A DNA stretch of 64,000 nt from Naegleria lovaniensis (Eukaryota; Heterolobosea; Eutetramitea; Acrasida; Naegleriidae): the NCBI RefSeq assembly GCF_003324165.1, contig NW_025407824.1, positions 915,605-979,604 of the forward strand, read 5' to 3'. The notes beneath the pieces were generated by a model. That model was given only the letters and a program-made list of their open reading frames with translations. It had not been told where the DNA came from and made no database searches. Positions 2,501-36,398 of this stretch are shown one piece after another; within the stretch, counting starts at the first letter, position 1, and each line of letters begins with the position of its first letter. A program made the position numbers and the translations under genes.

Positions 2501-2592
2501 ATTGTAAATCTATTACAACACGGTAATTGTAATTTTTAGAGGGAAACATCGCTTGAAAAATTTCCTAAACAACACAGTGTGTAGTGTCAACC

Positions 2593-3762: not shown

Positions 3763-3772
3763 NNNNNNNNNN
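3763..3772. other. Assembly gap (10 N)
   Basis: Ten Ns, a conventional placeholder for a join of unknown length. The flanks (3607-3762 and 3773-4080) contain no convincing gene. One forward frame stays open from about 3630 to the gap and may be the start of a second ORF of the element upstream. Confidence 0.95.
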
Positions 3773-3809
3773 GGTAACTGACAAGGAGAGGAGGTAAAAG
3801 AGAGAAAGC

Positions 3810-4016: not shown

Positions 4017-4080
4017 TTAGATCATTCCATTGGATATTTACAAAATATTTAATGTCAGTACTCATGAATCACCAATTTTT

Positions 4081-6756: not shown

Positions 6757-7188
6757 GTTTTTGGATTCGAGTATATTTGTTTGTGTTGTTGTTGTTGTTT
6801 TTAATACTTTTTTAGTTTCCTTCGAAATGAATTCTTGTCGTTCTGGTTCTAATTCAATGAGAAATCCTTTTTCCAAATCGGGTGAATGTAACCAATCATT
6901 AGATGGTCGAGCGAAAATTCCAACATGTCCGAACGTCTGTACTAGAAGAAACAATCTTCCTTAGATCTACAGTGAACGAAACGTTCATGCGGCAACTAAA
7001 CTATGGACTTATTCGTCATGATGAACCATTTCCATCCACAACGATCGCACCGAAATCGATATGAATACCTGCGACAATATTGTTGTGAACAATAAGTGAC
7101 ACATTCGATCGACTGTCTGAAATATTGGAAGCTCTTATTGTGTGTGTTGTATTTGGAGTACTTTTACATGGATTAAGGATTGAATTCC
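6757..7188. repeat. Duplicated 5'-flank block, copy A
   Basis: Upstream region of GATA gene 3. From about 6952 it carries conserved pieces in order: CAATCTTCCTTAGATCTACA, CATGCGGCAAC, GATCGCACCGAAAT, CCTGCGACAA, CATTCGATCGACTGTCTGAA and a TCTTATTGTGTG-like end. The same pieces recur upstream of genes 4 and 5, so the duplication unit included the promoter region. Confidence 0.8.
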
Positions 7189-8229: not shown

Positions 8230-8714
8230 GTTTTTGGATAAATGTTTGTGTTATTGTTGTGTTTAATTTTTTCAGTGTCCTTCGAAATACAATCTTGTCG
8301 TTGTGGTTCTATTCAGTGAAATGTGAACCCTCTTTCCAAATCGGGTGAATGGAAACAGTTATTAGCCGGTCTAGTGAAAATTCCAACAGGTCCGAATGTG
8401 TGTACTGGAAGAAACAATCTTCCTTAGATCTACAGTGAATGAAACATTCATGCGGCAACCAATCCTTTGACTTTTTCGTCATTATGAACCATTCCCATCC
8501 ACCATGATCGCACCGAAATCGATTGAAACAGTGGAATTAGGAACCATCTTTCTCTTCTTCTTCACTGGTTGCTGTTTGTGCTGGCACAGTTGCCTTTTTC
8601 TCAACCTGCGACAACATCTGTTGTGAAAAATAAGTGTACACATTCGATCGACTGTCTGAAATATTGGAATCTCTTATTGTGTATGGTGTACTTATGGTTT
8701 ACGGATTGAATTCC
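8230..8714. repeat. Duplicated 5'-flank block, copy B, with ~80-bp extra segment
   Basis: Upstream region of GATA gene 4. It has the same conserved pieces as copies A and C (CAATCTTCCTTAGATCTACA at about 8416, then CATGCGGCAAC, GATCGCACCGAAAT, CCTGCGACAACAT, CATTCGATCGACTGTCTGAA). Between GCACCGAAAT and CCTGCGACAAC it carries roughly 80 bp missing from the other two copies. Confidence 0.8.
8537..8617 (-). CDS. Putative 26-aa micro-ORF in copy B spacer
   Basis: On the minus strand ATG TTG TCG CAG (8617) opens a 26-codon frame whose product is charged and ends SEEEEKDGS before TAA. It begins right after a splice-acceptor-like TTTTTCACAACAG and spans the segment unique to copy B. In copy C the same ATG opens a 16-codon frame; in copy A the ATG is ATA. 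It could be a short upstream ORF, a relic last exon, or chance. Confidence 0.2.
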   Translation of the reverse strand: MLSQVEKKATVPAQTATSEEEEKDGS

Positions 8715-9773
8715 TTATTCATTACTTTTTTCCAATATTAACATATCTGTAAATGATACATCTTCCTTGGCGGATAATTCTCCATGATCTGATGATTGTG
8801 GTTGTTGTGAAATTTGAGAGGTTTGTAAAATCTGTGAAAGAATTTGAGGTTGAGTCAAGACATGTTTTCGAATCAATGAAATTAAGGTTTGAATAATGTC
8901 TGGATATCTTTCAGAGGCTTCTTTCAATCGATCCTTTAACACATTCAATGATGACCAACCATGATGTACTTGTCCTTCATGATTTAGAGTTTCTGTCAAA
9001 TTACTTTCGTTGGATTGAGTTGAAATTATATGGTCCTGTTTCATCTTTTTACATTCACATTCAGGGAGTTCGTCTCCAGAAGTTGACGCTGAGACATTGC
9101 TTGTGGATGATGATCCCTCAGCTTCCGTTGCCACATGTCTTTTTCTTCTTCCTAATTTGAGATATTCCTTGACAGGTCGATTCATTCCATATCTCAATTC
9201 ATACAATCCACACTTGTTACACAATGTTTGACCAGTCGATGGATTTTTTCGCCATGTTGGAGTGGAGCGAGTTCCACAATTTTCACATTGTGAATTCTTT
9301 GTGGTCATTGAACGTGTTCGTTTTTTCAGTCGGTTGTTGTGAAATTCGTTGTGTACATTATTTGACTGTATTGGATCTTTAGGATGGAATGATAAGTTTC
9401 CTTTCGAGGTTGAAAGTTGTTGTGGTGAGGAGGGAGCACCATTCGACAACACATCGTTTGAGATCTTTAACGGATCATTCAAACATGATGAAATATCTTC
9501 TCGATAAGGATTCTTTAGATCATGATGTGTCGTCGTATGGTTCGCAGGGTGTGTCTGTAACATGGGTATCGTCATGGTTGGTACGTTTGGTTTGCATGTA
9601 GCAGCTGCTCCATGAATTTGGAGCACTGGAGAAAGGAGAACATGTTTCACACTTGTAGTCTTCTCGAAACAAGTGGCTTGTTGATCATCTTCCTTCTGTC
9701 CATTCCCTTCATGATCATGTTGTAACAAGATCCAGTCTTCGATGGTGGAGCTGTTTGAAGAGAATAAATCCAT
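8715..9773 (-). CDS. GATA zinc-finger protein 5 of tandem array
   Basis: 352 aa, starting MDLFSSNSSTIEDW. The finger starts at CENCGTRSTPTWRKN with an 18-residue loop, and its tail LRYGMNRPVKEYLKLGRRKR is one residue shorter than in genes 3 and 4. The KHVLLSPVLQIHGAAATC block near the N-terminus is kept; the region between it and the finger is more diverged. The C-terminal block is almost identical to genes 3 and 4 (GWSSLNVLKDRLKEASERYP to LTQPQILSQILQTS). The protein ends MLILEKSNE, like gene 4's MLLLEKSNE. It is the first gene of the array in transcription order. Confidence 0.88.
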   Translation of the reverse strand: MDLFSSNSSTIEDWILLQHDHEGNGQKEDDQQATCFEKTTSVKHVLLSPVLQIHGAAATCKPNVPTMTIPMLQTHPANHTTTHHDLKNPYREDISSCLNDPLKISNDVLSNGAPSSPQQLSTSKGNLSFHPKDPIQSNNVHNEFHNNRLKKRTRSMTTKNSQCENCGTRSTPTWRKNPSTGQTLCNKCGLYELRYGMNRPVKEYLKLGRRKRHVATEAEGSSSTSNVSASTSGDELPECECKKMKQDHIISTQSNESNLTETLNHEGQVHHGWSSLNVLKDRLKEASERYPDIIQTLISLIRKHVLTQPQILSQILQTSQISQQPQSSDHGELSAKEDVSFTDMLILEKSNE

Positions 9774-10183
9774 GTTTTTTGATACGTGTTGTTGTTGTTT
9801 GTGTTGTTTGTGTTGTTTTTGGATTTTAAATTATTCAGTGTCACTTGTTCGAAATGCAATATTGAGGTTCTTGAGGTTCTAATTCAAGTGAGTGTTAACC
9901 CTCTATTCCAAATCGGGTGAATTGAACCTATCATTGTTTGTGGTTATAACATTCCAGTTCACAATCTTCCGTAGATCTTCTGTGAATGAAACGTTTCATG
10001 CGGCAACAAAACCGTTGATTTGATATGTGTCAATCATGAACCTATGATCGCACCGAAATGGATGCGAATACCCTGCGACAACATTTTGTGAAAAACATGC
10101 ACATATTCGATCGACTGTTTATTCTTCTCAAAAACACTCTTTTATTCAATAACAACAAACAATTTTTATAAAAACACAACCGA
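9774..10183. repeat. Duplicated 5'-flank block, copy C
   Basis: Spacer between GATA gene 5 and the dikinase 3' end. The conserved pieces are at about 9961-10120: a diverged CAATCTTCCGTAGATCTTC, CATGCGGCAAC, GATCGCACCGAAAT, CCTGCGACAACAT and ATTCGATCGACTGT. It marks the outer edge of the duplicated unit. Confidence 0.75.
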
Positions 10184-13117
10184 CTACTTTTTCGAAAGAA
10201 TGGATTGTTGTGCAGCTGCAATTCTTGCAATTGGAATTCGATAGGGTGAACAACTCACATACGTCAATCCACATGTGTGTAAAAATTGAACCGATTGTGT
10301 CTCGCCTCCATGTTCTCCACACAAGCCCACATTCAAATTTGGTTTCACACTTCGTCCCTTCTCGACTGCCATCTTTATCAACTTTCCAACTCCATCTTGA
10401 TCAAGAATTTGGAAAGGATCATTTTGTGACAATTCCATGTCAATGTAATCTTTGAGGAATTTCTCGGCATCGTCTCGACTGAATCCAAAAGTCATTTGTG
10501 TTAAATCATTGGATCCCACACTGAAAAAATCAGAAACAGTCGCAATTTCATCTGCAAGTAAAGCAGCTCGAGGTGTTTCAATCATGCATCCCACTCTAAA
10601 TTTCACCTTATCATGTGATGTGGAGTGTGACAATATTTTCAATGCTACTTTTTCAATAATTTCTTTTTGATGTTTCAATTCTTGAATGGAAGAGATGAGT
10701 GGAACCATAATCTCCACATGAACACAGGGTGATTGAGAGGCGAGAGCAGCTTCGAAAATGGCCTCTGCTTGCATTTGTGTAATTTTGGGGAGTGTAATGC
10801 CGAGACGACAACCACGATGACCGAGCATGGGATTCTTTTCAGAGAGTTCTTCAATCTTTCTCAACACGACACTCTTGTCTTCACCCACTCTCTTGGCAAG
10901 CTCTTCAACTTCATGATCTTCATGAGGTAAGAATTCATGGAGAGGTGGATCTAAGAGACGAATGGTCACTTTGCGATCTCCCATCACATCAAAGAGTCCC
11001 TTGAAATCATTACGTTGATATTCTTTGAGTTTTTGAAGGGCTTCTGTACGTTGCTTTTCATTGGTGGCAACAATCATTCTTCTCATATCGAGAATTCGAG
11101 TCTTTTCAAAGAACATGTGTTCTGTTCTGCAAAGTCCAATACCTTCTGCTCCAAATTCAATGGCTTTTGTTGCATCTGTGACAGTATCTGCGTTGGCATA
11201 AACTCCCATGGTACGATAGCGCTTTTCAATTTCCATGACTCGAGCAAAATCTCCACTCAAAGAAGGTTCTGAGGTTTCCAAAGCACCTGCAAAGATCAAT
11301 CCAGTAGAACCATCAATGGTAATAATATCACCTTCCTTGAATTCAACACCATTAATAGTACATGTCTTTTCGTGCTCATTGACAATCAGTGCCGAACAAC
11401 CGCTCACACAACATTTACCATTTTGACGAGCAACAACAGCTGCATGACTGGTAATTCCTCCATTGGTTGTGAAAAATCCTTGTGAAATTTGCATACCTGC
11501 CAAATCCTCGGGACTGGTATCGGTACGAACGAGAACGACAGGTCCCTTTGTTTTTCTTTCTTTGGCCATCTCAATGGCAGATTCTGATGAGAAGGCAATA
11601 CGACCGACAGCACAACCTGGAGAAGCTGCCAAACCACAGGCCAATGGTTCATGTTTGGAAATTTCCTTCTCAGAGAGATAACGATGAAGAAGTTGATCCA
11701 ATTGGGACGCATCCAACTTGAGAATGACTTCCTTCTCAGTGATGAGACCTTCATCGAGCATGTCACAATAAATTTTGAGAGCAGCTTTTACAGCTTTCTT
11801 TCCGTTTCGGCATTGAAGCATGTACAAGACACCTTCCTCAATGGTAAATTCCATATCTTGAATGTCCTTAAAATGTCTCTCCAATTTGTTACTGATGTCT
11901 AAGAGTTGTTTGTAACATTCGGGGAAAGAATTTCCCAACTCTTCAATTCTCTCGGGAGTTCGAACACCACTCACAACGTCTTCACCTTGTGCTTGTCTCA
12001 AATATTCTCCATAGAATTTGTTCTCGCCGTCGCTGGGTTTCTACTAAAGCAAACACCAGTACCAGAGTGTTGATTAATGTTACCGAATACCATCGATTGA
12101 ATATTGACTGCAGTTCCTTTCAAATTTCTAATATTGTGAATTCTTCGATAGTGAATCGCTCTGGCATTGGTCCATGACTTGAAGACTGCAATAATGGCCT
12201 TGAATAATTGTTGTTTGGTATCTTGAGGGAAGGGTTCTCCAGTCTTTTCGAGAATGGTCTTTTTATGATCCTCAACAATCTCCTTAATCTCTTCCAAGGT
12301 CAAATCAATGTCGAGTGAGATACCTCTCTGTTGTTTTTGTTTCTTCACATTTTCTTCGAAATGCTCGTACTTGACTCCCATGACCACATCACCATAGATT
12401 TGAATCAAGTTACGATACGAGTCCCAAACAAATCTCTCATTGCCACCAAAATTCTTAATCATGATTGGCAAATTGTCATCACAGAGACCCAAGTTCAAAA
12501 TTGTGTCCATCATACCTGGCATGGATACAGCAGCACCACTGAAATTGATACAACAATTTTGTAAAATATAAAATTCGGTAAATAGGTGACACACCATTTT
12601 TGATCATCACACAATCATGGATTTCATCATGCAAAAAGAATTTTGATTCCATCGTCATCACCATGGTTGTGTATGTCCATTGATTGTATTTTGTTGACAT
12701 TAGATCGTTGTATAAAATTTGTCTTGTTGTAAATCAACACCACCACAAGAATACAAACCTTCGAACAGAGACCAACAAGACCTTCTCATTCTCATTTTGC
12801 AAGGATCCAAACTTCTTATTGGTCACCTTCTCCAATCGAGCCAAATATTCATTCACTTCGGAAACAATTTGTTCCGGTAATTGGTTTTTGGAAGAGACGT
12901 TTCTTTGAGCCATCTCCTCTTCATCATCCAAATCAATATTCGAAGCATAATTATTGTGTTTGTTAAACAATACGTTGGCTTCAGTGCAAATGGTAAATCC
13001 TGGTGGTACAGGAACTCCCAAATTGACCATCTCTGCCAAACCAGCTCCCTTTCCTCCCAACAACTCTTTCATGTTGCGATTTCCTTCTGTGAGGTTTTGT
13101 TTGCTCTGTGGATCCAT
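10184..13117 (-). CDS. ppdK: Pyruvate, phosphate dikinase (frame broken in this sequence)
   Basis: Interconverts pyruvate, ATP and Pi with PEP, AMP and PPi; in amitochondrial and amoeboid protists it serves PPi-dependent glycolysis (family knowledge). Exon 1 is 13117-12759 ([27 protein letters not shown]). A GT-AG intron (12758-12539) splits the Ser of [16 protein letters not shown]. Exon 2 runs from 12538 to 10184 with the catalytic-His motif [22 protein letters not shown], and the PEP-binding C-terminus LCGEHGGE and [16 protein letters not shown]. Near 12027 the frame breaks: NPATG continues as [18 protein letters not shown] only if a G is added to a GG run. At 13137-13140 one missing A would join an upstream frame (ATG at 13200, MSTNHNNFL) to [12 protein letters not shown], the usual N-terminus of this enzyme. 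The gene is therefore about 904 aa from MDPQ, or ~932 aa with the extension. Confidence 0.93.
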
Positions 13118-13200: not shown

Positions 13201-14057
13201 TGTGTGTAGTTGTTGTTGAATCTAGAGATGTTTTTTTGTTGTGGTTGATTCAATGATCGCTGTTGGGACTGAGAATTTTCGACGAATTCATCCATTTTTA
13301 CATGGGTTCATTTATAGTCATTTGATAAACCTTAAAAAGGAGAATTTTAATGAACTACTGTTTTAACACAAAACATGGTTCATGAGTATATCATTGAAAT
13401 AACCAGCTACAAGTAAGTCAATTGTTGTTTGATGTGGTGTGACTGTTCTTGAATCTCACTACAACCAAGAAATAAATCGTTTGAATTTCCTTGGACCTTT
13501 ATTATTTGAATTGTTTGCCTTCCTCAAAGTTTTGATCAAGATGCAACTTGAAGAACTCGCTTTCATAAGGCTCTTCTCTCTGGTGGGCCACGAACATCAA
13601 ATTCATATGGTGTTTCTTAATTTTATAAAGAAATGGTTTTCATTTCAAATTTTCAACAAACCATTTTCCATAACAAAATAAATTCTCTTGCCAAGCTTGA
13701 TTTTCTTAGACCTTAGCAAATGTGAGCTTTTCTGTTCACATCATCCTCTTACACCAGACACAACTTCCTTCAAATTACCGAATTCCGTCAAAAAAAAAAA
13801 CGAGGATACCGAATATTGTGTTGCCTCATCATCCAAGATAATATTGTGTTCCGATTTTTGATTTTATTATCATTATCAACGGATAATCACAACATCATCG
13901 TACGCGTGTTTTATTTGCATCATCACGCTATTTTAAATCCAATTTCATAGATAACGAGCAACTTTTTAATTGGAGTAGAACTTGTAGCAAACAACAACAC
14001 TCCTAGTAATAATAATTGAGTAGTACATCACTCGAGTAAAACAACAATAACAACAAA
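13201..14057. other. Divergent intergenic region, dikinase / Trx-TPR-J gene
   Basis: About 860 bp between two divergent genes, the longest gene-free stretch in the window. It holds a run of ten A at about 13791 and AT-rich tracts. An 80-codon ATG frame at 13439-13681 has no recognisable domain and I do not call it a gene. It presumably contains both promoters. Confidence 0.5.
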
Positions 14058-15919
14058 ATGGTCAAGGAAATTAAATCCGATTCTCAATTTACATCAGAAC
14101 TTGCCAGTACCAACAAGCTGGTAGTGGTCGACTTCTTTGCCACATGGTGTGGTCCTTGCAAAAAGGTTGCTCCGATTTTTGAACAACTCTCCACTCAATA
14201 CCAACAAGATGCCGTCTTTCTCAAAGTAGATGTAGATATTTGCCAACAAACAGCTGCTCAATGCGATATTTCGGCCATGCCAACCTTTGTTCTTTTCAAG
14301 AATAAGAAGAAACTCGATCAAGTAGTTGGCGGAGACATGAACAAACTCAATCAATTGATTATGAAACACAAAGGAGCAAGTAGTAGCAGTACAAATGGTA
14401 CAAGTTCTTCTTCACAAGTAGAAGATAATGAACCCATTCCAAGTCATCTTACAACAGCTGAAGATTTCAAAGAGGAAGGCAACAAGCGATACAAGAAAGC
14501 ATCTTACAAGAAGGCTGCTGAATGTTACTCGAAGGCCATTGAAATTGATCCAAATCAAGCACCCATCTACACCAACAGAGCAGCATGTTATTTACAATTA
14601 CAACAATACAAGAAAGTCATTGAAGATGCTCTGAAAGCTCAACAATTAGATGCTAAATTTACCAAGGCCTATCTCCGAGCAGGTCAAGGATATTTACAAA
14701 TGGGTAAAACAAAAGAAGCCAAAGAACAATTCGATTTGGGACTTAAACTTGAACCCAATAGTGACCTTTTCAAGAAGGAACGAGAGGCAGCTGAGAAAAT
14801 TGAAAAATATTTGAATAATTCTAAAAATTTCCTTTCTCAAGGACTCTACAAGGAAGCTAGTGCTGAGGTTGATTTGGCATTGCAAATTGCTCCACATTCG
14901 ACCATTGTGAAATTGGTCAAAATTGAATCTCTCATTGGACTGAGAGAATTTGATACTGCTGCCAAAGAAGCTTCCGCCATTCTTCGAGATGTTGACAGTA
15001 ACAATTCAGATGCTCTATTTTTGAGAGGACAAGCGCTCTATTATGCTGGAAATACAGATAGTGGACTCAATCACATCACACAAGCACTCAACTTAGATCC
15101 TGACAATCAAAAATGTATTCAATTTAGAAAACAAATTAAGAAAATTGAAGCTTTAAAGGAAGAAGGTAACAAACTTTTGCGAAATGGAAAATACCAAGAG
15201 GCCTACGATGAGTATACCAAAGCGATTGAAATTGACCCAAAGAATGCAAATTTGAATGCTGTATTATATTGCAATCGAGCTGCAGCTGCAACCAAATTGG
15301 GTAAACACGAGGTTGCCGTCAAAGATGCCACCAAGGCCATTGAATTGAATGACAGTTATTTGAAGGCCTACATGCGTAGAGGTTCGAGCTATATTGAGCT
15401 CGAACAATATGAAGACGCCATGCGTGACTACAATAGGGCTCACGAATTGGATAAGGACAATGAGGAAATTGAACAAAAATTGAAAGAAGTACGAAAATTA
15501 TACAAACAAAGTAAGAAGAAGGACTATTACAAAATCCTAGGAATTGAAAAGTCTGCTTCCACCGATGAAATTAGAAGGCATACAAGAAGCTTGCTATGCA
15601 ATGGCATCCAGATCGATACATTGACGAAGAGGAGAAGAAGAATGCTGAAAACAAATTTAAGGACATTACAGAAGCACATAGTATTTTGTCAGATCCTCAA
15701 AAACGACAACAATACGATTCGGGTGCCATGGATGCCGATTTCGAAGGTGGATTCCATGGAGCTGACATGAACGACATTTTCAGAATGTTCTTTGGTGGTG
15801 GAATGGGAGGTATGGGAGGCATGCACATGGGTGGTTTCGGAGGTGGTGGTATGGGCGGTTTTGGAGGTGGTGGAAGAAGAGGTGGTGGTGGCATGGGTGG
15901 AGGACAATTCTTCTTTTAA
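14058..15919 (+). CDS. Thioredoxin-TPR-DnaJ fusion co-chaperone (one frameshift)
   Basis: Starts at 14058 in an A-rich context (AACAACAAAATG). Residues 1-110 form a thioredoxin domain with the active site [10 protein letters not shown] Ser/Thr linker follows, then about nine TPR units in two clusters (for example [20 protein letters not shown] and [20 protein letters not shown]), then a J domain ([19 protein letters not shown]) and a Gly/Met-rich tail. The frame breaks near 15577-15578. Adding one G to AGAAGG gives [16 protein letters not shown], restoring helix II and the essential HPD, and the next frame runs to 15919 (about 620 aa). TPR plus J resembles DNAJC7-type Hsp70/Hsp90 co-chaperones (family knowledge). 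The N-terminal CGPC thioredoxin suggests a redox-active or redox-sensed co-chaperone, probably cytosolic, since no signal peptide is visible. Confidence 0.9.
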
Positions 15920-21257: not shown

Positions 21258-24200
21258 CTATTCAGAGGCAACCTTAAATTGGAAGCTATAATCAATGGGA
21301 CTGAATTTGATGTGAATGTTGGTATATGTCATGGCAATGCCAATATCTTTTCTAATTTCCAAATCTTTGGGCAAGTGATTGATAATCCAATTAATAACAG
21401 TTTCTTTGTTATCACCAAATAATGAAAGATGTTGACTTAACGTGGATGGAAGGACCAATAGCTTGGTGTTGGAGAAGAATTTCACAGTCTGAGAAAGGAA
21501 ACAAGTTGATTGTTGAATTAATTGAGCTTTCACCAATTCTGGACTTGCAGGATAATAAATTCTTAAATGAGGCGACGAGAAGCAACAATTACTCAATGCC
21601 AAACAATTCAGAGGATCTTTCTGATAGACATCTTTCAACAATTCGTGCTTTCCACTATTCGAAACATTTTTAGCAGAAGTCAATAAACAAAAAATGTCAT
21701 CCAATGAGAGAGGAATGCTTCCAATCACATACATGGGCTCTCGAAGGAATCTCATTCTGGATCTCATGGACATGAGTGGATAAGTTCCATTCTTAATAAA
21801 TCCATGCAACAACATGACATGATAAATATTCAATAAAAATACAGTTAAGAGATGCTTTTTGGATTTCAACTCGATCACATCGACCAATTCCAATTTGTAC
21901 GTCAATTGTGTAAATTCATCGACCTTTTCTTCATTTCCTGTCAAGACTATAAACTCATTGCCCAATCTTAATAATTTGCCCCATCCCATTCGCTCTTTTT
22001 CATTGAATCGAGTTTGTGAAATCCATTCGGACGCATTATAAATTTCAATAATACTTCTCAACAAAATGACACTCAATTCCACTGCCTCATTCGCTGAAAA
22101 GTTTGTGGCCTTGAGTAATTTAGCTGCTTGTGTTTGTTCGCCATGACTCAATGATCCAGACATGGACGACGATGAAGCTGTGGTTCCTCCTCCTGTTGTT
22201 GATCCACTCGATGAAATCACTGAAAAAACATCTTCCTCATAAAGCTTATCTGGTGTTTGTGGTGGCATGGCCACATTTCTAGGTGAAATGGAATGCGTAC
22301 GACCAGTCGTGCTGGTGTTATTCATCGTTGTCGTTGTCGTCACAGAACGAGATGTTATATGACTCATGTTATTTGAAACCTCACTCGTTTCTGAAGCACT
22401 CGTTTCAATGGTTGGACTATTTCGATGGATTGTCATCACATGAGCAAGTCGACTTGTTTCATTGGGTGATGGAGAATGTTCTGATGAGAGAGAATCTTCT
22501 TCTTCTTCTTCAAAATCTTCTTTGCACACATGATGATTGGATCCATCTTTTCGTGATAAAAGCATGATACTCATGGATCGATTGGCAACCAAAAGACTAG
22601 TTTTTCTCGAAGAATCTCCATCTTCAAATAAATGATTCACATTATCATCCAAATCATTGTCATATAATCATCATTGGTCGAGGAGTCGTCGATATGAATT
22701 TCTTCAGCAAATTTGTTCACAACTACTACTACTTGTTGAGTATCAGGAGGAGGTGCATTTAACATGACACTGAAACCTCGAGTTTTTCGAAGTTGAATTT
22801 CTGAATCGCGTTGTCTCTGAAATTCTACTTGTTGTCGTTTCAAATCCATTTGAATTTGGAACATTTGATCAAGTTGTTCCCATTGAAGAGTTTGCATGTA
22901 ATCAATTGCAATTTGAAGTGTAACGAGTGAATATCCCATTGGACCCATCATGATGGATTCATGAACAAAATCTTCTAAAATTTTGAATTGACAATACAAA
23001 TCAGGAATGGATGCCTTAATGAGAACAAAGATGAAAATGGGCATTAAGGCATCGGCAGAAACTTCACGTTCTCGTCCGTGATAAATTTTCACACATTCGA
23101 CAATGGCTTTTGAAGTTTCCATTAAGAGTTTCATTTTACCTTCGACTAGACTGTTGCATTGTGAAATGTTACGAAGTGATTCGATGGCAAGTGAATAATT
23201 TTCTTCAGCACTCTTTCCATTTCCATCCAAACAATATTCATCGGCAATTTCCAAATGTTTTGGAGTACATTTGGCAAGTTCGACATATTTTTGATTCACA
23301 ATTTCAGATTTCACACTATATTCTCTCTTGTAGAGTTCAAAGACGAGAGGAAACACTTGATCGAAAAAGACATGATCAATACATTGTGAAAAGAGAGGTT
23401 CCATTTGATTGGGATCTACCTTGATCATCACTCCATAATCCGCTGCTTGTGGAATGATAATTTTCATCACTTGTCGTGCCAATACTCGATACATTTCATC
23501 AAAAAATGATGCAATTAATGATTTTGCTCTAGAAATGACAATTAATTTCTCTTCTGTCGTGAGTGAATGATAATAATCTTGTGAATAGGTGCTGAGAAAT
23601 TGTCGAGATTTTTGTTTCACCACTCGATGAAATAAACTTGTTGGATTTTTGATTCGATTCATTAAATGTTTGAAAATCACTAATTCTTGTTCGTCAATAC
23701 TGGTACATGCGGACATTTCTTGGAAAAAATCAAATTCACATTGATTCAATTCAATAATGTCTGCAAACATGAGGAGAGATTCTTCGAAAAATTCTTTCAA
23801 TGTTTTCAATGGTTTTCCCATGACTGTTTCAAAAGCTAAACAATCGGTGGAATAATTTTCAATGGAATTTGGATCTTCTTTGACCATGGTTAAATAATAG
23901 ACCATTTCTTTTTTGATGGCACGATGTTCAAAGAGATCCTTATTGTCAATACTGTGTGTGTGAGAAGGTGAGAAGAGAGAGAGACAGGTGGTGTTGTTAC
24001 CAATGGATGAAAACAAGTGAGTTGACAATGTTGTTGAACATTTGAACCATTTGGTTAATTCATGATGGTCATCAAAAAATTCATGTCAAAAAATTCATTC
24101 GAAAAATACTTACAAGAGACATGGGAAGGATTTGGAAATGTCAATAGCAGAACATGATACTGGCTTCTTCAAAACTTCATGCATGAGTCGTGCAATTTCA

Positions 24201-26209
24201 CGGAAACTAGCTTTTGTACCGTGACACACAAAATTCTTCACTATTTGTTCCGAATCTAATTTGATATTTTGTAACAAATGTAAAATAAATTCAATCACAT
24301 CGTCACCGTCACACCACTCCAATCGATCATTTAAGACATCAATGGTGGATGAAACTGGAATGGAAAGTGAAGAATAGGTCTGTATCTCTGAGCCAGATAA
24401 CGTTGCAAGTGTTTGATAGAGCCATCCAAATTCTACCATCGTGTACGCTGTTTTACATTTCATGGAAAGATAAATTGAAATTTTGGTTAAAAATTCTGGA
24501 CAAATTCTTTTGGTGGCAGAATCGTACAATAGGATAATGTGTTTCAATTTGGTGGATCTCTGACTGTTGTCAATCACTTTCTTGAACGATTCGGCGTCGA
24601 ACCACTTGTTGAGAAGATATTTTGCCTTAATAAAGAAAATTAACTTTTCACATTGAATGACAGCATCGGACACAATGTCAATAAACTTTTCTTGTAAAAT
24701 TCCCTTAATACGATTCTCTGCCAAATCATCCGATTCAATATCATGGAATGAGGCAGATCTTGATGCTTTGAAAGGAACACCAAGCATTCCAGATTGTGCA
24801 ATAATTTCTTCTGTTCTACGTTTTCGAACTTCTTCCATTACTTCAATTCTCACTTTACTTTCCACACTCTTCTTCTCTTTTTCATAATCAAATACAATGT
24901 ATTGAGCTGTCTTGAATGGATAATCAGGTATTTCCTTTTTAGAAAATATAATATTCTTAGAGAGATAATTCTTTTCATGGAGAGCGTGTAATAATTTGGA
25001 TTGAATAAAGTGAATGGATCCAATCATGCACACACATGGATTGTGATCTTGGAAGGTTTCCAATTCTCTCTCAATAAAGCTATCGAAAGGTGTTGGAGCT
25101 GACTTTTTGATGTCTTGTACATCTGGATAAACAGCCATGGCCAAACCTGCATCATAGATTCGTGTGTACATGTCATGATAGGCGTCACATTCCCATTTTC
25201 TGAGACCTTTGGATAGCATCAATCGATGAATGGATTGCTCTCTGTCAATAATTTTATATTCAACAGGAACATTGGTCTTTTTCGAGAATTTGGTAATGAC
25301 ATCCTTAATGGTTAAACTTTCTGGACCTGTCAAGGTGTAAGTTGTTCGATGTTTCTTTTCATTTTGTTGCTGAGTGGATGCATGTGATTGACTAATGAAC
25401 AATAAACCTGCATTGGGAGGTTTTGGTGGTTGTGAAGACATGGTAGAGCTTACTTGAAACATGATATTCATAATCATGGAACAAACGGATAGACCTACGT
25501 CACGCGCATCGACCCATGAAACTCTCTTCTTGGATTCATCATCTGAATCTTTCAAGTCTCCAAATGGAAAATAAAAAGTTCTGGTCTTTTCATCGTAAAA
25601 CAGTAGAAAATCTTGCATGGTTCCATTACAACGAAGAATTCCACACGAGTGTCCAAAATAAGTCTTGACCATTTGTTCACATTGTAAATGACAATGAAAC
25701 AGTTCTGGTAATTCAATGGCATGTTCTTCATTCGACGAGTTTTCTTGAGAATGTTTAGTGAATCCACTCTTAAAGGAATCATGTGGTTGAGAAGAAGGAG
25801 CTGTATAATATCTCGAACAAAGGAAAAAGGAATCTACAGATAATTGCAAGGCAAAATTAATGACTTGGTTCATATCTTCGACAATATATTCATGATCGAG
25901 TGGAATGTGAACCACACATGATATGTGATATTGCTTTTCTTTGATTTGTTCAACGAGAGAGGCTTCTTCAAATCGACGAAATCCATTCTCCAATCGAATG
26001 ACAATAGCTCCATAATTTTTCAATAATTCCTCTTTTGAAACTGTGTTAAAACTTCCTTTTCTTTCATGGTCATTGTTATTAGAAGAAGTCTGAGGAATAA
26101 ATTGTGTAGGATGACACACTGCAATGACACGAATTTTTCGAAGTAGTAGAGATTTCACAACCTCCATACCAATGTTGGAAGTGGCATTGGTCACAACTGA
26201 GATTTCCAA
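21258..26209 (-). CDS. NmrA-like / VPS9 / DUF547 multidomain protein
   Basis: Exon 1 (26209-24114) and exon 2 (23951-21258) join through a GTAAGT intron with a strong pyrimidine-rich CACACACACAG acceptor and a phase-perfect junction. One missing base near 22661-22668 separates the VPS9 and DUF547 frames. Corrected length is about 1,596 aa. Residues 1-380 are an NAD(P)-binding, NmrA-like fold (NATSNIGMEVVKSLL; YTLTGPESLTIKDVITKFSK). Residues ~385-690 look like a second, degenerate Rossmann-like unit. Residues ~1000-1075 are a VPS9 Rab5-family GEF core (SADALMPIFIFVLIKA, then MGPMGYSLVTLQIA). After a Ser/Thr-rich linker, residues ~1350-1570 match DUF547 (LLNIYHVMLLHGFI, LSLDDIF, LNCLALSNCCFSSPHLRIYY). 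The VPS9 region should activate an endosomal Rab; the Rossmann units may sense NADP(H) or be scaffolds (inference). The architecture is unusual. Confidence 0.8.
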
Positions 26210-26344
26210 GATATCATGGGTTGTACAATTTCATTTCCATTCGAACACATTTCACACAAAACATTCATTCCGTTCAATTGCGTGACAACAATAATAAATT
26301 CCATTATTTTCATCATCACAACAATCATGAATTCACAATTGACA

Positions 26345-27520
26345 TTATTTTTCATGTTTCAAACTATTCACATCTCTTTCAAAACTCTTCAACCTACCAA
26401 TCGCTACAATTTTTCTCGACTCTACTCCCTTCACTCCATTCTGTGAATCATTCTGTGACGTGTTTAGTGTTCGAGTCGATCGATCACTCATCAAAGAATT
26501 ACTCGATCCAGCAGCACCACCATTCGCTCTCGTTCGTGTTCTCATACGTGATCGAACGTGTTGAGTGGCTGCTCGTTTCACTTTTTGAACCCAATCTTCA
26601 CGTTCCTCTTCATGATCTTCGGAACAAATTTGAAAGGTATAGGAACGTTCACTATAAATTTTATCCTTGCTGAAAGACTGTGAAGATGTGGATCAGGAGG
26701 AGGAGAGAGTGAGCGAGAGAGTGAGCGAACAGAATGATGATGATCATTGGATGATCCCAATTGGAATTTGATGATCATTGGATTGTACAACACCACGCGC
26801 AAGTAAATTCACACATGTAAATACATTTTGTTATAGAGAGAGCGATGAATTTCACAACAATGATTCAAATTTTGAACATGTTAGAGAATTGAATAGGATG
26901 GATGATCAATTTCAACATCATTAATTTCATGATCAATTTCAACATCATCAACCATTGGTAGTCCATAGGATGATACAAACCTTTTCACACTTGACATGAA
27001 ACATTCTCTTATTCTTCTCATCCACACTCACACTTCCGTTTTGTAATTGTAACAATCCAATCACTGGTGCATCCACTTCAGATTTATATATCAAAATATC
27101 ATCCACTAATATGAAATATCGTTTTTTCCATGATCGCCATTTAATTCCTTGTTTCATGAGATGACCACTTTTCACAATTTGTGGAATGGATGACAACGAT
27201 GAAGGTAAGGAATGATGATTCATCATGGCATTGGTTGTATTATTCATTGGCAACGACGTGGATAATTGTTGTTGCTGTTGTTGTTGTTGTAAATACGAAG
27301 CTTGTAGCTCACCATTTGCACTTAATCCATACTTGGCCAAAACAAATTGAAATTCTGCAGAGGATTTGGTGGTTTTTCTTCGACGCGCCGATGATGGAGG
27401 AGAAGGAGAGGAAGGAGTATGGTTGTTGTTGTTTGAATGTTGTTGATGACTTGTGGTGGTGGTCGGAGAGTGTGGCAATGAGGTGGAGTGTGCGTGATGA
27501 TGGTTGTCTTGTAAAGACAT
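26345..27520 (-). CDS. PH-domain protein
   Basis: Two exons, 27520-26981 and 26677-26345, 290 aa. The GTTTGT donor and TTCACAG acceptor join phase 0 inside the PH domain, between HVKCEK and SFSKDKIYSE. The N-terminal half is His/Ser/Pro/Gln-rich with a short polyGln. The PH domain starts at VKSGHLMKQGIKWRSWKKRY and ends with the helix EEREDWVQKVKRA that carries the conserved Trp. A basic Arg/Ser-rich tail follows. The start is the ATG after six A residues (MSLQDNHHH); the frame is open 13 codons further but has no ATG there. It probably binds phosphoinositides or a small GTPase at a membrane (family knowledge); no catalytic domain is present. Confidence 0.85.
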
Positions 27521-29660: not shown

Positions 29661-29814
29661 TTTTCAACAAGTTCATCACCTGCAATTTCTGAGGGTAGGT
29701 TCATCATTTTTCCTTCTTCTTTGTGTAATTACTTTGGCTCTTTATTCATCTTTTGTTTAAATGTTGAACTTTGGTGGGACCATCCGTTGATGTTCCCTGT
29801 TCTGTTGTAAAAAA

Positions 29815-31728
29815 ATGCAGCAACACCGCGATCAATTATCGGGCTGTCCATCATCAACGGCCTTTATAGATGGAAGGTTTGAGGTTGCATCTTCCAACAC
29901 ATTTAATTCCATGTCCATGATCATACCAAATAACAGGACTTTGCGATCACCACTACCTACTCTCTCGGAATATGAAGATCCTTTTATTATACATGATCCC
30001 AACGCATGTTGGTGCTCGGGATGTAAAAGAAAAATTGAAATAGGCTCTGTAATTTTATTATGTTTAAATTGTCCTTTTGGTCGACATATACACAAATCAC
30101 GAAATATGGAAGTAAATGACATGACCACAAGCTGCTGTAGTAGTAGCAATATTAGTCAATCATCAATGGATGGAAATTCTCAAAATTCAAATATCAACTC
30201 CAATAATAATACAAAAGGGTACATGTTATGCAACAAGTGTGGAAAGGACTTTTCAAAGCATCATCTTAAAAAAGGTCATTGTTTTGTGACCATGTTGAAT
30301 AGAAGATTTAGTTACGAAGCTCTATTAGAAAGTGCACGATTTGATACATTATCAAGCAAGATTAGTTCAAAGTGTATTTCAAAGAATGGTGTTTTAGTGG
30401 TGGATGGTTTTTGTAAAGTTGAGTCAAGTCATATCAAGTCCAATTGTTGGTTATTCACAAAACCAAAAGAATTATTTGCAGATGAGGAGATTCAAATATT
30501 TAATGATAAAGTAATTCATAGAAGAGTGACATGTGATGGTTGTGAATGTACAATTCATGGAACAAGATACTGTTGTTTAAATTGCGCTGACTTTGATTTG
30601 TGTAGTAATTGTATGAAACAGCATTTACATCATGGTCGAAGCAGCATGTTGGGAACAGATACGTCCATAGATCGATCCACAATGACCGTACAGAATATTG
30701 CTAACACTGAGGCAGCCACAGCAGTTTCACACAATCCGAATCATGTTTTTTTACAAACATTGCTTCCACTATTGAACAGACCTCAACAGCTTTCTAAATG
30801 TATTTTTTTGGATGGCCTTAGTGAGAATGAAACTGGAACTAGCTATATGAATAACAGCGTCAATCATGGTAACAGCAGCCTGACGTGGAATAGCTCTTCA
30901 CCAACTGACTTCAATAATTCCCATAATTACGAGCAACAGCAGTCATCCATGCAACAACACATGGTGATTCACACTACAAACTCACCACAAACTCTTGGAA
31001 ATAACACTACATCTGGTTTGATTGACCTCACGCAATCGAACCCAAATATTACAATCATTCCATACAATTCGAATATATTTGACTTGCTCTATGAAATTGA
31101 ATGTCTGAGCTTTTCCAAAGCATACAATAGGGAGTTATTATTGCAATTATTGAATTTATCACTGTACAATTCTTTGGACAAACCTGTTGATTATTTTGCA
31201 TGGGTTGCCTTAGTGAATACTGAAATGGTACATGGTATTATTAGTACCAATGCACGTTCACACCACACAAAAAAACCTCAACAGTACGTTGCAGGATTTA
31301 TCATGTACAATGTGAATAAGGAAAAGGAGAGAGCTGAGATTTCATCCTTTGCAGTACATCCCTCTTTGAGAAGTCATGGAATTGGTCGTGAATTATTGCG
31401 CTACTCATTATCTCACATTCTTAATTATGAATGGTTGTGGTATGGCCAAAAAAAATCGTCGTTGAACTATTGTCTGCGAACAACAAGAAAATATTGTGCC
31501 TCCATCTCAATAGTCCAACCAAACCATCATCCTAGAGAGAGATTAAAGCAATTTTCCGAGCCAGCACTTTCTCTCTCCGACCTCAATCTTTTAAGTTTCC
31601 GTCTATTTGTACAAATCCTCAATTTTATATCCGACAAAAGGCCTCCTAATGAGGGTTGTCCAACAAAAGCCTCAGTCGGTAAGTGTTGTTTTCTCTGTGA
31701 GAGAATTCAGCAGAAAAAAATAGCCTAA
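29815..31728 (+). CDS. ZZ-type zinc-finger protein with C-terminal GNAT acetyltransferase domain (frameshift)
   Basis: Starts after AAAAA at 29815. Two Cys/His-rich modules are seen: residues ~65-155 (WCSGCKRKI, LCLNC, LCNKCGKDF, HHLKKGHC; diverged ZZ-like) and ~240-285 (VTCDGCECTIHGTRYCCLNC, DLCSNCMKQHLHH; clear ZZ). A disordered Asn/Ser/Gln linker leads to a GNAT fold from ~residue 420. Its acetyl-CoA motif is ISSFAVHPSLRSHGIGRELL, where SHGIGR matches the Q/RxxGxG/A loop. At the run of eight A (31448-31455) the plain frame goes astray. A ninth A gives QKKIVVELLSANNKKIL, the expected next strand and helix, ending at 31535. The uncorrected frame ends at 31728, and a GTAAGT near 31680 leaves the true end open. 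ZZ fingers commonly read histone H3 tails, so a chromatin acetyltransferase is plausible (inference). Confidence 0.75.
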   Translation: MQQHRDQLSGCPSSTAFIDGRFEVASSNTFNSMSMIIPNNRTLRSPLPTLSEYEDPFIIHDPNACWCSGCKRKIEIGSVILLCLNCPFGRHIHKSRNMEVNDMTTSCCSSSNISQSSMDGNSQNSNINSNNNTKGYMLCNKCGKDFSKHHLKKGHCFVTMLNRRFSYEALLESARFDTLSSKISSKCISKNGVLVVDGFCKVESSHIKSNCWLFTKPKELFADEEIQIFNDKVIHRRVTCDGCECTIHGTRYCCLNCADFDLCSNCMKQHLHHGRSSMLGTDTSIDRSTMTVQNIANTEAATAVSHNPNHVFLQTLLPLLNRPQQLSKCIFLDGLSENETGTSYMNNSVNHGNSSLTWNSSSPTDFNNSHNYEQQQSSMQQHMVIHTTNSPQTLGNNTTSGLIDLTQSNPNITIIPYNSNIFDLLYEIECLSFSKAYNRELLLQLLNLSLYNSLDKPVDYFAWVALVNTEMVHGIISTNARSHHTKKPQQYVAGFIMYNVNKEKERAEISSFAVHPSLRSHGIGRELLRYSLSHILNYEWLWYGQKKSSLNYCLRTTRKYCASISIVQPNHHPRERLKQFSEPALSLSDLNLLSFRLFVQILNFISDKRPPNEGCPTKASVGKCCFLCERIQQKKIA

Positions 31729-33084: not shown

Positions 33085-34087
33085 TTATTGCATCAATTTA
33101 GAAATCGCTTGTTTTGGAAGAATTCTTTCCAATGGATTCAATTTAAGCATGTTTGCAACGAGCTCAACAAATTCAGTAGAGTATGGACTGGGTTGTGGAA
33201 TTTTCATCAAAATAAATTTTTCAATGTCGTTTCCTCCCATTTCATAATATTGAGACAATACAGTGGTCGTGTTCATGGACATTAATTGAAATAAGGTCAC
33301 TCCCAATGCAAACATATCACTTCCAACAGAGAATGATTTGTTTTCTTTGTATTGTCGTTGTTGGAAATTCGTATGTAGTAATTCTGGAGCCATGAACAAC
33401 AGAGTTCCAACCTGAGAGCCATTAGTAGAAATCAAATCAATGGATTTCGAAAGACCAAAATCACCCAATGCCACTTGGATAGTCTCCTCTTTCACATCAA
33501 AATTTCTCACCAAAATGTTTCCAGGCTTAATATCACTAATCATAGGACTCAATTACGGTCTGACCATCCATCAAAAACACTTACCGATGTAAAATTCCAT
33601 ATTCACTAAACATCCAATCCAACGCTTCACAGACTTGTTTCGTTAATTGTCTCAATATATTTTCTGATAACCTAATTTTCTTATCAATGAAAAGCGACTT
33701 TAAACTTCCTTGCATCAGCTCCATTTCAATGCATACACGTGAAGTAATATTGGGAATGAATGCATCGTAAATTTGAACAATATTAACATGTTTCATTTTG
33801 GCCATAGTCAACGCTTCCTTAAATGCGTCATTTAGAGTTGAGGGATTGTCCACTTGGAGTTGTTTCAATGCTTTGCATTTTTTGGTTTTCAAATCCACCA
33901 CTCGATAGACATTTCCAAATCCTCCATTGTCTATAAACACAATCTGTTCATATTTGGTTTTCAAATACTTGTCTATGATCGAAAGCTCTCTGAAAGTTGG
34001 AGAAGAATTTAGAGTTTCTGTGCTCGTGGAAATATTTCCATCATTGGATTCAAAATTGCCTGGTGTTTGCGTATTCAACTCGCTCAT
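33085..34087 (-). CDS. Protein kinase domain
   Basis: Exons 34087-33585 and 33535-33085, 317 aa, joined by a 49-nt GTAAGT intron that restores HRDIKPGN. Kinase landmarks: Gly loop DNGGFGNVYRV, Lys in KALKQL, helix-C Glu in KEALTMAKMKHVNIVQ, catalytic HRDIKPGN, DFG as LGDFGLSKS, and APE as LLFMAPELL, so an active Ser/Thr kinase is expected. The ATG overlaps the stop of the upstream DUF4116/PB1 ORF as ATGA. Such overlap is not expected between two eukaryotic genes, so kinase and repeats may be one protein joined by a short intron or a lost base. If separate, the kinase has a ~45-residue Ser/Thr-rich leader. Confidence 0.88.
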
Positions 34088-35985
34088 TGATAAAGACGAT
34101 GATGTTGAGATTTGACACTACACACATTCTTGGCCGAGTGAATTCCAAAGCTTGAGCCCGGAAGCATTGAGTGCTGTGATGAAAACGAGTGAATTGTGTC
34201 TGATCGTTTCGTTTCATGGCTCTGGAATGATTGAGTACTTTCAGAGTAGTCCTTGGTGCTGTTGGAAGAACCTATTGAATGTTGTGACGACAATTTGTGA
34301 GATCGATTCGTAACATGAACTTTGATAAATTTGTTCTTGTTTTCAAGAGATGAATCTTGGAAGAGTGCGAGACAATCTTTCACATCATGGTCGTTCTTGA
34401 CATCCATATCCCCGAAAGTTGGATCAAAATAAGTCAAGGTCATTGCTTGGTCTTGTAATTGTATAAACGAATTCTTCACTTGTTCCATCAGAGACAAGAA
34501 TAAATTATTGCTGTCAATAGTCACTCTGCTCATTCTTGTCCCAAACTCATCTTCGAGTTTAATCACAAGTCGTTGGGAGATGTTGGATGGTTGGGGAGAC
34601 ATTGTTGTTGGTTGGGATATGCTCGACATTTGTTCAGGCAGTTTGGTTGGTTGTGGTTCGTGGAATAGCTTCTGGTTGAGCAAAGTGTATCGTTTTTCTT
34701 TGTCAACCTCTTGTGAACAAACTTGAATGCTCATGTCAATGATTCTGTCAACCTCATTCTTAAAGCTATCATCAATTGCTAAATCTTCCGAAATAAAATC
34801 ATTCAATTCTTGAGAAATGCGATGATGATTATTTTCTTTGGTTGACGCTAGGTTCAAAGTTACTTGTTTCACTGCTTCGAAAACAACATCTTTGTCTTTT
34901 TTCAATTCTTCTGCAGCATGTATAAGTGCAAAACCATTTTGTTTCACTGCTTCGAGAACAAGTATGTTGTCTTTCTTAAACCTTTCTGATGCATATTCAA
35001 GTGCTAAACCGTTTTGTTTCACTGCTTTGAAAATAATTTCTTTGTCTTTTTTAAACCTTTCTGCTGCATACTCGAGTGCAGTACCATCTTGGTTCACTGC
35101 TTCGAAAACAATTTCTCTGTCTTTTTTCAATTCTTCTGCAGCATACATAAGTGCAGAGCCATTTTGTTTCACTGCTTCGAGAACAATTTCTCTATCGTTT
35201 TTCAATTCTTCTACAGCATATCCAAGTGCAATACCATCTTGTTTCACTACTTCGAGGATAAATTGTTTGTCTTTTTTCAACTCTTCTGCAGCATACATAA
35301 GTGCATAACTATTTTGTTTCATTGCTTCGAGAACAATTTCTTTATCTTTTTTCAATTCTTCTGCAGCATATTCAAGTGCAGTACCATCTTGTTTCACTGC
35401 TTCGAAAACAATTTCTTTGTCTTTTTTCAACTCTTTTGCAGCATATTCAAGTGAAATACCATTTCGTTTCACTGCTTCGAAAACAATTTCTTTGTCTTTT
35501 TTTAATTCTTCTGCAGCATACCCCAGTGCAACACCATCTTGTTTCACTACTTCGAGGATAAATTGTTTGTCTTTTTTCAACTCTTCTGCAGCATATTCAA
35601 GTGCAGTACCATCTTGTTTCACTGCTTCGAAAACAATTTCTTTATCTTTTTTCAATTCTTCTGCAGCATATATGAGTGTAGAACTTTTTTGTTTGACCGC
35701 TTCGAGAATAAATTGCTTGTCTTTTTTCAACTCTTCTGCAGCATACTCAAGTGCAGACCCATTTTGTTTGACAGCTTCTAGAACAATTTCTTTGTCTTTT
35801 TTCAATTCTTCTGCAGCATGTATAAGTGTAGAACCATTTTGTTTCACTGCTTCGATAACAATTTCTTTGTTTTTTTTCAACTCTTCTGTGGCATATTTGA
35901 GTGTAGAACTTTTTTGTTTCGATTTCTCCAGGACCATTTGTTTGTTTTTTTTCCTAATTATAGAAAAATAATCTTTCCAACCCAT
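34084..35985 (-). CDS. DUF4116 tandem-repeat protein with PB1-like domain
   Basis: 633 aa from MGWKDYFSIIRKK (35985). Residues 36-360 are 13 full copies of a 25-residue unit of the form LKKDKEIVLEAVKQNGSALE + YAAEE, with a diverged copy before and a partial one after; this is the DUF4116 repeat, common in Naegleria and some giant viruses (family knowledge). Residues ~470-555 resemble a PB1 domain: RLVIKLEDEFGTRMSRV, then LTYFDPTFGDMDVKNDHDVK with the acidic OPCA-like cluster. A Ser/His-rich tail follows. PB1 domains pair with other PB1 domains and often sit next to kinases, which fits the kinase directly downstream. A single DUF4116-PB1-kinase protein of ~900 aa is possible through a short phase-matching intron (about 60 nt) around the junction. 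Confidence 0.8.
   Translation of the reverse strand: MGWKDYFSIIRKKNKQMVLEKSKQKSSTLKYATEELKKNKEIVIEAVKQNGSTLIHAAEELKKDKEIVLEAVKQNGSALEYAAEELKKDKQFILEAVKQKSSTLIYAAEELKKDKEIVFEAVKQDGTALEYAAEELKKDKQFILEVVKQDGVALGYAAEELKKDKEIVFEAVKRNGISLEYAAKELKKDKEIVFEAVKQDGTALEYAAEELKKDKEIVLEAMKQNSYALMYAAEELKKDKQFILEVVKQDGIALGYAVEELKNDREIVLEAVKQNGSALMYAAEELKKDREIVFEAVNQDGTALEYAAERFKKDKEIIFKAVKQNGLALEYASERFKKDNILVLEAVKQNGFALIHAAEELKKDKDVVFEAVKQVTLNLASTKENNHHRISQELNDFISEDLAIDDSFKNEVDRIIDMSIQVCSQEVDKEKRYTLLNQKLFHEPQPTKLPEQMSSISQPTTMSPQPSNISQRLVIKLEDEFGTRMSRVTIDSNNLFLSLMEQVKNSFIQLQDQAMTLTYFDPTFGDMDVKNDHDVKDCLALFQDSSLENKNKFIKVHVTNRSHKLSSQHSIGSSNSTKDYSESTQSFQSHETKRSDTIHSFSSQHSMLPGSSFGIHSAKNVCSVKSQHHRLYQ
34864..35955. 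repeat. 75-bp tandem repeat array (DUF4116 coding)
   Basis: About 14-15 units of 75 bp encoding the 25-residue repeats. Units of the types KEIVFEAVKQDGTALEYAAE and KQFILEVVKQDGxALGYA alternate, which suggests that larger blocks were duplicated. The regular, stop-free units also create long antisense open frames. Confidence 0.9.
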
Positions 35986-36398
35986 TTCGAGTTTTGGCAA
36001 GGGAAGATGTGGAGGTGATTTTTTGTTGTTGGTTATTTTCGAGAGAGATACTAGATGAAATATTGACAGGATCGATAAAATATATCGCTTGAAAACCTTA
36101 CTGCTAAAACAACAGTTTCGCGGTCATGATGCTGCAAGAAAGGACTGGCATAATTAAACTGGCCCTTCTGAAACAAATTTGGTTTGCTTGTCCTTGATGT
36201 ATTCATGGAAACCTAAGTAAAGGAATATCCGGTTCTGTAAAATAATAAGAGAATCAGGCATAGCAAGTGCTAACATTTGTTAACGAGTTCGGGATCTTTT
36301 AACGGGTGAATATGATGTGATAGCGCGGAGATGTGTGAATTTTTTTTAAGAGGAAACGGCATTGTAAAAAGTTCTAAATTCAAATTTACACAATTTAC
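35986..36398. other. Intergenic region, DUF4116 gene / PP2C gene
   Basis: About 410 bp between the 5' end of the repeat gene and the 3' end of the phosphatase gene. AT-rich; no ORF, repeat or RNA structure recognised. It should hold the promoter of the DUF4116 gene. Confidence 0.5.

What the first reader, a model, noticed from the sequence alone, without database searches (positions are those of the whole stretch)
21258..26209. NmrA-like / VPS9 / DUF547 protein: a Rab GEF fused to dinucleotide-fold units
Exon 1 ends in a GTAAGT and the VPS9 exon begins after a textbook acceptor in the right phase, so the Rossmann region and the VPS9 core belong to one gene; DUF547 follows after one lost base. 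I know of no described protein with this order. It could couple NADP(H) state to endosomal Rab activation, a candidate for an undescribed signalling system.
Basis: partly seen in the sequence, partly recalled or inferred. Interest (0 to 1): 0.75.

Follow-up and report, generated by a model that had tools for sequence, protein, structure and literature searches.

The report
Multidomain protist Rab GEF gene
A single-celled eukaryote's gene appears to join a membrane-binding domain, a worn-down dinucleotide-enzyme fold, a switch-on domain for endosome GTPases and a domain of unknown function in one protein; it looks like a new domain combination on a known kind of protein, and the proposed redox-sensing role is weakly supported.

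Summary
On the minus strand four exons (27520-26981, 26677-26398, 26196-24114, 23951-22640) join in phase to 1,405 codons without a stop. Then come a full-length NmrA-type SDR unit (hhalign E 2.8e-13), a weak second NmrA-like unit, and a strong VPS9 domain (70.6 bits) with the Asp, Pro and Tyr of Rabex-5. DUF547 follows in another frame; both frames score as coding up to their limits. Two conserved genes of this window show similar direct frame changes, so an assembly indel is likeliest; a weak intron is not excluded. The NADP(H)-sensor idea is weak: GATG of the dinucleotide loop, present in 7 of 7 relatives, is NATS here. Best reading: a phosphoinositide-recruited Rab5-type GEF with a pseudo-reductase scaffold. 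The paper searches made found no protein joining VPS9 to NmrA or DUF547. New variant of a known kind.

The parts
26981..27520 (-). exon 1: ATG at 27520, low-complexity N-terminus, first part of the PH domain
   Evidence: open frame, in-phase donor GTTTGT at 26980; PH partial 2-75/105, E 2.6e-6
26678..26980 (-). intron 1 (303 bases, phase 0)
   Evidence: GT..AG; its removal raises PH from 28.3 to 42.6 bits, covering 2-103/105
26398..26677 (-). exon 2: end of the PH domain, basic linker, first strand of the NmrA unit (KIVAI)
26570..27175 (-). PH domain (model residues 116-216), split by intron 1
   Evidence: Pfam PH E 9.2e-11; nearest solved: PLEKHA6, GRP1/cytohesin-3, pleckstrin-2, TAPP1 PH domains
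26197..26397 (-). intron 2 (201 bases, phase 1)
   Evidence: GTAGGT..TCTCAG; joins KIVAI to VVTNATSNIG in frame
24114..26196 (-). exon 3: NmrA unit 1 and NmrA-like unit 2
25043..26196 (-). NmrA unit 1 (model residues 267-658; the first residues lie in exon 2, 26419-26398)
   Evidence: hhalign prob 98, E 2.8e-13, 282 columns against a profile of 7 prokaryotic NmrA/QOR2-type proteins; model matches SimC7 and SwaQ2, TMt 0.67-0.71
26168..26188 (-). degenerate dinucleotide loop N-A-T-S-N-I-G (GATGxxG expected)
24114..25042 (-). NmrA-like unit 2 (model residues 659-967), no Gly-rich loop, charged insert
   Evidence: co-linear alignment; hhalign 25.5, above 600 of 600 shuffles, but one of 48 decoy pieces of this window reached 24.2; no Pfam hit
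23952..24113 (-). intron 3 (162 bases, phase 2)
   Evidence: GTAAGT..ACACAG
22640..23951 (-). exon 4 (frame ends at TGA 22639-22637): helical region and VPS9 domain
22886..23191 (-). VPS9 domain; Asp at 23053-23051 (residue 1268), Pro 1272, Tyr at 22933-22931 (residue 1308)
   Evidence: Pfam 1.7e-19, 3-102/104; aligned to Rabex-5 4n3z; coordinates
21258..22667 (-). continuation in another frame: low-complexity linker and DUF547
   Evidence: both frames score as coding up to their limits; DUF547 E 1.4e-12
21498..21842 (-). DUF547 domain
   Evidence: Pfam PF04784, 11-124/125, 48.1 bits

Best explanation
One gene encodes PH - NmrA - (degenerate NmrA-like) - VPS9 - DUF547. Shown from sequence: an in-phase exon structure for the first four parts, the domain identities (second NmrA-like unit only probable), and the kept VPS9 catalytic residues. 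Inferred: the PH domain brings the protein to phosphoinositide-rich membrane (plasma membrane, macropinosome or phagosome); the helical region plus VPS9 unloads GDP from a Rab5/21/22-type GTPase there; the NmrA units no longer work as a reductase and serve as a scaffold or partner-binding and autoinhibitory module, as NmrA and HSCARG act through protein contacts (recalled); DUF547 is a C-terminal module of unknown chemistry. The frame change before DUF547 is most likely an assembly error; an unusual intron there would also leave DUF547 in the same protein.
For: Four exons join without a stop over 1,405 codons; removing intron 1 completes the PH domain; intron 2 supplies the first strand of the Rossmann fold; VPS9 70.6 bits, with Rabex-5 Asp313, Pro317 and Tyr354 matched by D1268, P1272 and Y1308; PH nearest to PLEKHA6, GRP1 and TAPP1 PH domains (lipid binding of the last two recalled); NmrA loop GATG to NATS; both frames at the frame change score as coding (0.31 and 0.34 per codon, against 0.08 or less in every frame of the three model introns), and so do the 31 codons before the first Met of the DUF547 frame (0.42); two other conserved genes of the window carry a similar frame change.
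Against: No transcript. No relative with this domain order was found, and eukaryote genomes could not be searched. Rabex-5 Glu351 is Pro here, which may lower activity. NmrA Pfam scores are at the edge (28.7 bits on the whole frame, 25.7 on the cut-out unit, cut-off 27), and the window sequence alone found no NmrA-type structure in the PDB. The third Gly of the loop is kept, and 3 of 7 relatives have Ser there, so loss of cofactor binding is not proved.
Confidence: 0.6

Rival explanations
1. NADP(H)-gated Rab GEF: the NmrA region binds dinucleotide and its state switches VPS9 activity.
For: Full-length NmrA fold; its nearest solved relatives SimC7 and SwaQ2 hold NADP+; a paper title in the listing calls HSCARG an NADPH sensor.
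Against: GATG replaced by NATS, conserved in 7 of 7 relatives compared; the Arg after strand 2 in 6 of 7 is His; unit 2 has no Gly-rich loop.
Confidence: 0.1
2. Two genes: PH-NmrA-VPS9 ends at 22637, and DUF547 is a separate downstream gene or the remnant of one.
For: The VPS9 frame does end in TGA at 22639-22637; the DUF547 frame has its own Met codons.
Against: No intergenic space (31-base overlap); coding signal on both sides of the switch, also before the first Met of the DUF547 frame; direct frame changes in PPDK and DnaJ genes of the same window.
Confidence: 0.12
3. An intron joins VPS9 and DUF547 in phase, so the frame change is real biology and not an error.
For: 10 of 45 phase-compatible GT-AG pairs have a pyrimidine before AG; the best acceptor (22481, TCTCTCTCATCAG) and the best donor (22640, GTGAAT, 4 of 6 matches to GTAAGT) exist, though not in the same pair.
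Against: Donors paired with the good acceptor match GTAAGT at 2 of 6; the stretches that would be removed score as coding (0.31 and 0.34 per codon, no stop), unlike the three model introns (0.08 or less in every frame, with stops).
Confidence: 0.12
4. PH and NmrA-VPS9 belong to two genes, intron 2 being a false join.
For: A stop closes the PH frame at 26345; the intron 2 donor GTAGGT is less ideal than GTAAGT.
Against: Intron 2 is in phase and adds the KIVAI strand that the NmrA fold needs; no Met codon precedes the Rossmann strand in the exon 3 frame, which opens at 26230.
Confidence: 0.1
5. A decayed gene: the frame change is real and the protein is no longer made whole.
For: The frame is broken as it stands; degenerate NmrA loop.
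Against: No further stop in 1,405 codons and intact coding signal; VPS9 catalytic residues kept; the same lesion type occurs in a gene with a 708-bit PPDK match.
Confidence: 0.06

Closest known systems
VPS9-domain Rab5 GEFs (Rabex-5/RABGEF1, PDB 4n3z, 2ot3, 1txu; plant VPS9a, 2efc)
   Same: VPS9 core preceded by a helical region, alignable over Rabex-5 chain 75-270; D313, P317 and Y354 kept
   Different: E351 is Pro; PH and NmrA units before and DUF547 after the core; no ubiquitin-binding family appeared in the Pfam scans
Vps9 proteins with extra domains surveyed by Herman et al. 2018 (PMC6032885)
   Same: Lineage-specific additions, PH domains included, are a known theme (passages and section 2.7 read)
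   Different: NmrA is not named in the main text and the only DUF there is DUF47; Table S1 was not read
NmrA/QOR2-type atypical SDRs (SimC7 5l3z, SwaQ2 8r2j, YtfG 2zcu, triphenylmethane reductase 2jl1; NmrA 1xgk, HSCARG 2wm3)
   Same: Whole-length alignment and fold
   Different: Dinucleotide loop degenerate; embedded in a signalling protein
DUF547 proteins (PF04784), for example a PTEN homologue of Entamoeba (PMC9122207, one figure-legend passage read)
   Same: DUF547 drawn on a phosphoinositide-signalling protein
   Different: Partner there is a PTEN phosphatase, not a GEF

Membership tests
VPS9-domain Rab GEF | VPS9 profile match above curated cut-off | tested here: met
   70.6 bits vs 27, 3-102/104
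VPS9-domain Rab GEF | catalytic Asp and Tyr (Rabex-5 D313, Y354) | tested here: met
   D1268, Y1308 in the 4n3z sequence alignment; numbering inferred from spacing to P317 and E351
VPS9-domain Rab GEF | moderately conserved P317 and E351 | tested here: inconclusive
   Pro kept, Glu is Pro
VPS9-domain Rab GEF | exchange activity on Rab5/21/22 | not testable with these tools
   needs an assay
PH domain | complete PH profile match | tested here: met
   42.6 bits vs 25.1, 2-103/105 after splicing
PH domain | phosphoinositide binding | not testable with these tools
   basic W-K-K-R-Y seen in the sequence; motif meaning recalled
NmrA/QOR2 atypical SDR | whole-fold homology | tested here: met
   prob 98, E 2.8e-13 over 282 columns; Foldseek top hit E 1e-8
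NmrA/QOR2 atypical SDR | GATGxxG dinucleotide loop | tested here: not met
   NATSNIG; GATG in 7 of 7 relatives
NmrA/QOR2 atypical SDR (unit 2) | homology of residues 659-967 | tested here: inconclusive
   above 600 of 600 shuffles, but one of 48 decoys scored 24.2 vs 25.5; model mean pLDDT 49
DUF547 | profile match above cut-off | tested here: met
   48.1 bits vs 27
DUF547 | same polypeptide as VPS9 | tested here: inconclusive
   direct frame change; coding signal on both sides supports it

The most novel reading that the evidence does not exclude
A single polypeptide that reads two inputs, membrane phosphoinositide (PH) and a small molecule held by a re-purposed dinucleotide fold (NmrA pair), and sets a Rab5-type switch accordingly, with DUF547 as a second effector module: metabolic gating of endocytosis in a protist.
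Probability: 0.1. Interest if true: 0.75.

Novelty: new variant of a known kind. Interest (0 to 1): 0.42.

Why it matters
VPS9 proteins are modular, and new partners show what lineages wire into endosome control. An NmrA-type fold in one protein with a Rab GEF did not turn up in the paper searches made, and gives a concrete, testable case of a metabolic-enzyme fold recruited into membrane traffic. The result also warns that gene models in this assembly may be cut at false frame changes.

Tried and rejected
Relatives: four scans of viral contigs gave 0 relatives from 1, 9, 7 and 59 pattern matches. Plasmid records by protein: the NmrA frame gave 1 record at E 0.01 and 11 at E 10, of which 7 of 11 are annotated as SDR or NAD(P)H-binding; the DUF547 region gave none. 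The one prokaryote genome scan gave 6 relatives of 60 pattern matches. No search with the whole architecture was possible.

Introns between VPS9 and DUF547: the filter in the script read the wrong letters of each site, so its empty result counts for nothing. Redone: of 63 phase-compatible GT/GC-AG pairs of 20-500 bases, 45 are GT-AG and 10 of those have a pyrimidine before AG. Their donors match GTAAGT at 2 to 4 of 6, those of the three model introns at 4 to 6. The pair 22640/22417 (4 of 6; 5 pyrimidines in 10) is not far from model intron 2, so an intron cannot be excluded by the sites alone; the coding score of the stretch speaks against it. The model introns are themselves predictions. My odds for the main reading are unchanged, since such an intron also leaves one gene; I added it as a rival.

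Intron 1: the acceptor TTTCAG (26670) was dropped because it puts the frame out of phase; CTTCACAG (26678) is in phase (worked out by hand; the script search for it failed; joined frame shown).

Structure models: unit 1 plus unit 2, mean pLDDT 55.5; unit 2 alone 49.0. The unit 2 model was built on an alignment with NmrA proteins, so its SDR hits are partly circular and not counted as proof.

The organism: not settled. It reads like a heterolobosean amoeba such as Naegleria (recalled, untested); two neighbour proteins searched in the PDB to get a pointer gave none in the rows shown.

Full report
WHAT IS THERE. On the minus strand, stop-to-stop frames at 26230-24110, 24085-22637 and 22667-21258 carry NmrA, VPS9 and DUF547. 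Two further exons lie upstream. The frame 27673-26948 holds the first part of a PH domain (2-75 of 105) and the frame 26692-26345 the rest, which alone scores only a weak PH_13 match (E 0.013, below cut-off). Joined at 26981/26677 they give a complete PH domain, 42.6 bits against 28.3 for the unspliced part. A further intron, 26397-26197, joins this exon to the Rossmann exon in phase and puts KIVAI in front of VVTNATSNIG, as the first strand of the fold needs. The four exons together read 1,405 codons without a stop.

THE ROSSMANN REGION. A profile of seven prokaryotic NmrA/QOR2-type proteins (L001-L007) matches unit 1 end to end: probability 98, E 2.8e-13, 282 columns. A PDB profile search with those seven plus the window's unit finds SimC7, SwaQ2, YtfG and triphenylmethane reductase first, and HSCARG and NmrA lower down (best 60 of 105 shown); the window sequence alone found nothing relevant. 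Pfam puts NmrA at 28.7 bits on the whole frame but 25.7, under its cut-off of 27, on the cut-out unit. The folded model, weak overall (mean pLDDT 55.5) but 80 or more in blocks of the Rossmann core, matches the same proteins. The GATG of the dinucleotide loop in 7 of 7 relatives is NATS here, and the Arg after strand 2 in 6 of 7 is His. Unit 2, 25042-24114, aligns co-linearly with the family and beats 600 of 600 shuffles, but one of 48 pieces of other window proteins scored nearly as high (24.2 against 25.5), Pfam finds nothing and its model is poor. I treat it as probable, not shown.

THE GEF CORE. VPS9 scores 70.6 bits. In the alignment with Rabex-5 (4n3z, E 3.3e-5) SADDFLP pairs with SADALMP and GEDGYYF with GPMGYSL. 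The paper on Lpg0393 (PMC4379102, passages read) names Asp313, Pro317, Glu351 and Tyr354; the spacing places them at these residues, so Asp, Pro and Tyr are kept and Glu is Pro. The alignment also runs over the helical region before the domain (Rabex-5 chain 75-270).

THE FRAME CHANGE. A codon-preference score, trained on eight other long frames of the window, is positive for the VPS9 frame to about 22680 and for the DUF547 frame from about 22668. Per codon it is 0.31 and 0.34 on the two sides and 0.42 before the first Met of the DUF547 frame, against 0.08 or less in every frame of the three model introns. Of 45 phase-compatible GT-AG pairs that could bridge the frames, 10 have a pyrimidine before AG; their donors are weaker than, or at best equal to, the weakest model donor, so an intron is unlikely but not excluded. 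Elsewhere in the window the two PPDK frames abut at 1kbl residues 264 and 260, and a J-domain passes from one frame to another near 15578 (J-domain continuity judged by eye). Repeated direct frame changes in conserved genes point to indels of the assembly. I have not mended any of them.

HOW IT LIKELY WORKS. Recruitment by PH (nearest solved relatives include PLEKHA6, GRP1 and TAPP1), nucleotide exchange on a Rab5-type GTPase by the helical-VPS9 part, and a scaffold or regulatory role for the NmrA region. Recruitment, substrate and regulation are inference. A Ras-like GTPase is encoded in pieces at 147-1496 (by eye); nothing links it to this gene beyond being in the same window.

WHAT IS KNOWN. 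Herman et al. 2018 (PMC6032885; abstract, passages and section 2.7 read) report Vps9 proteins with PH, RasGAP, CAP-Gly, kelch and other domains, and two MORN-Vps9 and one RasGAP-Vps9 protein in Naegleria gruberi. NmrA is not named in the main text, and the only DUF passage is DUF47. Papers holding both DUF547 and VPS9: 0; NmrA and VPS9: 1, a transcript table with the words on separate rows; Vps9 and Rossmann: 0; VPS9 domain and Naegleria: 2, of which I read from the Herman paper only; NmrA with guanine nucleotide exchange factor and PH domain: 4, none about such a protein by title (listing only). DUF547 alone: 21 papers, listing only save one passage. This library is partial, and supplementary tables were not read.

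VERDICT. A real gene, larger than reported: a VPS9-type Rab GEF with what looks like a new domain combination; the redox-sensor reading is possible but disfavoured.

Noticed in passing
10184-12603 (-): Pyruvate phosphate dikinase in two frames that abut at 1kbl residues 264/260: a direct frame change in a conserved enzyme, probably an assembly indel.
   Followed up: yes
14040-15900 (+): Thioredoxin-TPR protein with a J-domain, read by eye, that changes frame near 15578.
   Followed up: partly
147-1496 (+): Small Ras/Rab-like GTPase split over several exons (identity read by eye).
   Followed up: no
1637-9830 (-): Five neighbouring frames with a CxNCGT-type zinc finger and a shared C-terminal motif, a tandem array of GATA-like genes (family name recalled).
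   Followed up: no
29791-31728 (+): ZZ zinc finger and GNAT acetyltransferase in one frame.
   Followed up: no
34084-36123 (-): At least 13 copies of a 25-residue repeat (LKKDKEIVLEAVKQNGSALEYAAEE-like), in a frame that overlaps a kinase-like frame downstream by 34 bases (kinase by eye).
   Followed up: partly
47169-48654 (+): Four overlapping frames of an alpha/beta-hydrolase-like gene (identity by eye), overlaps 32, 59 and 82 bases: more frame changes or introns.
   Followed up: no
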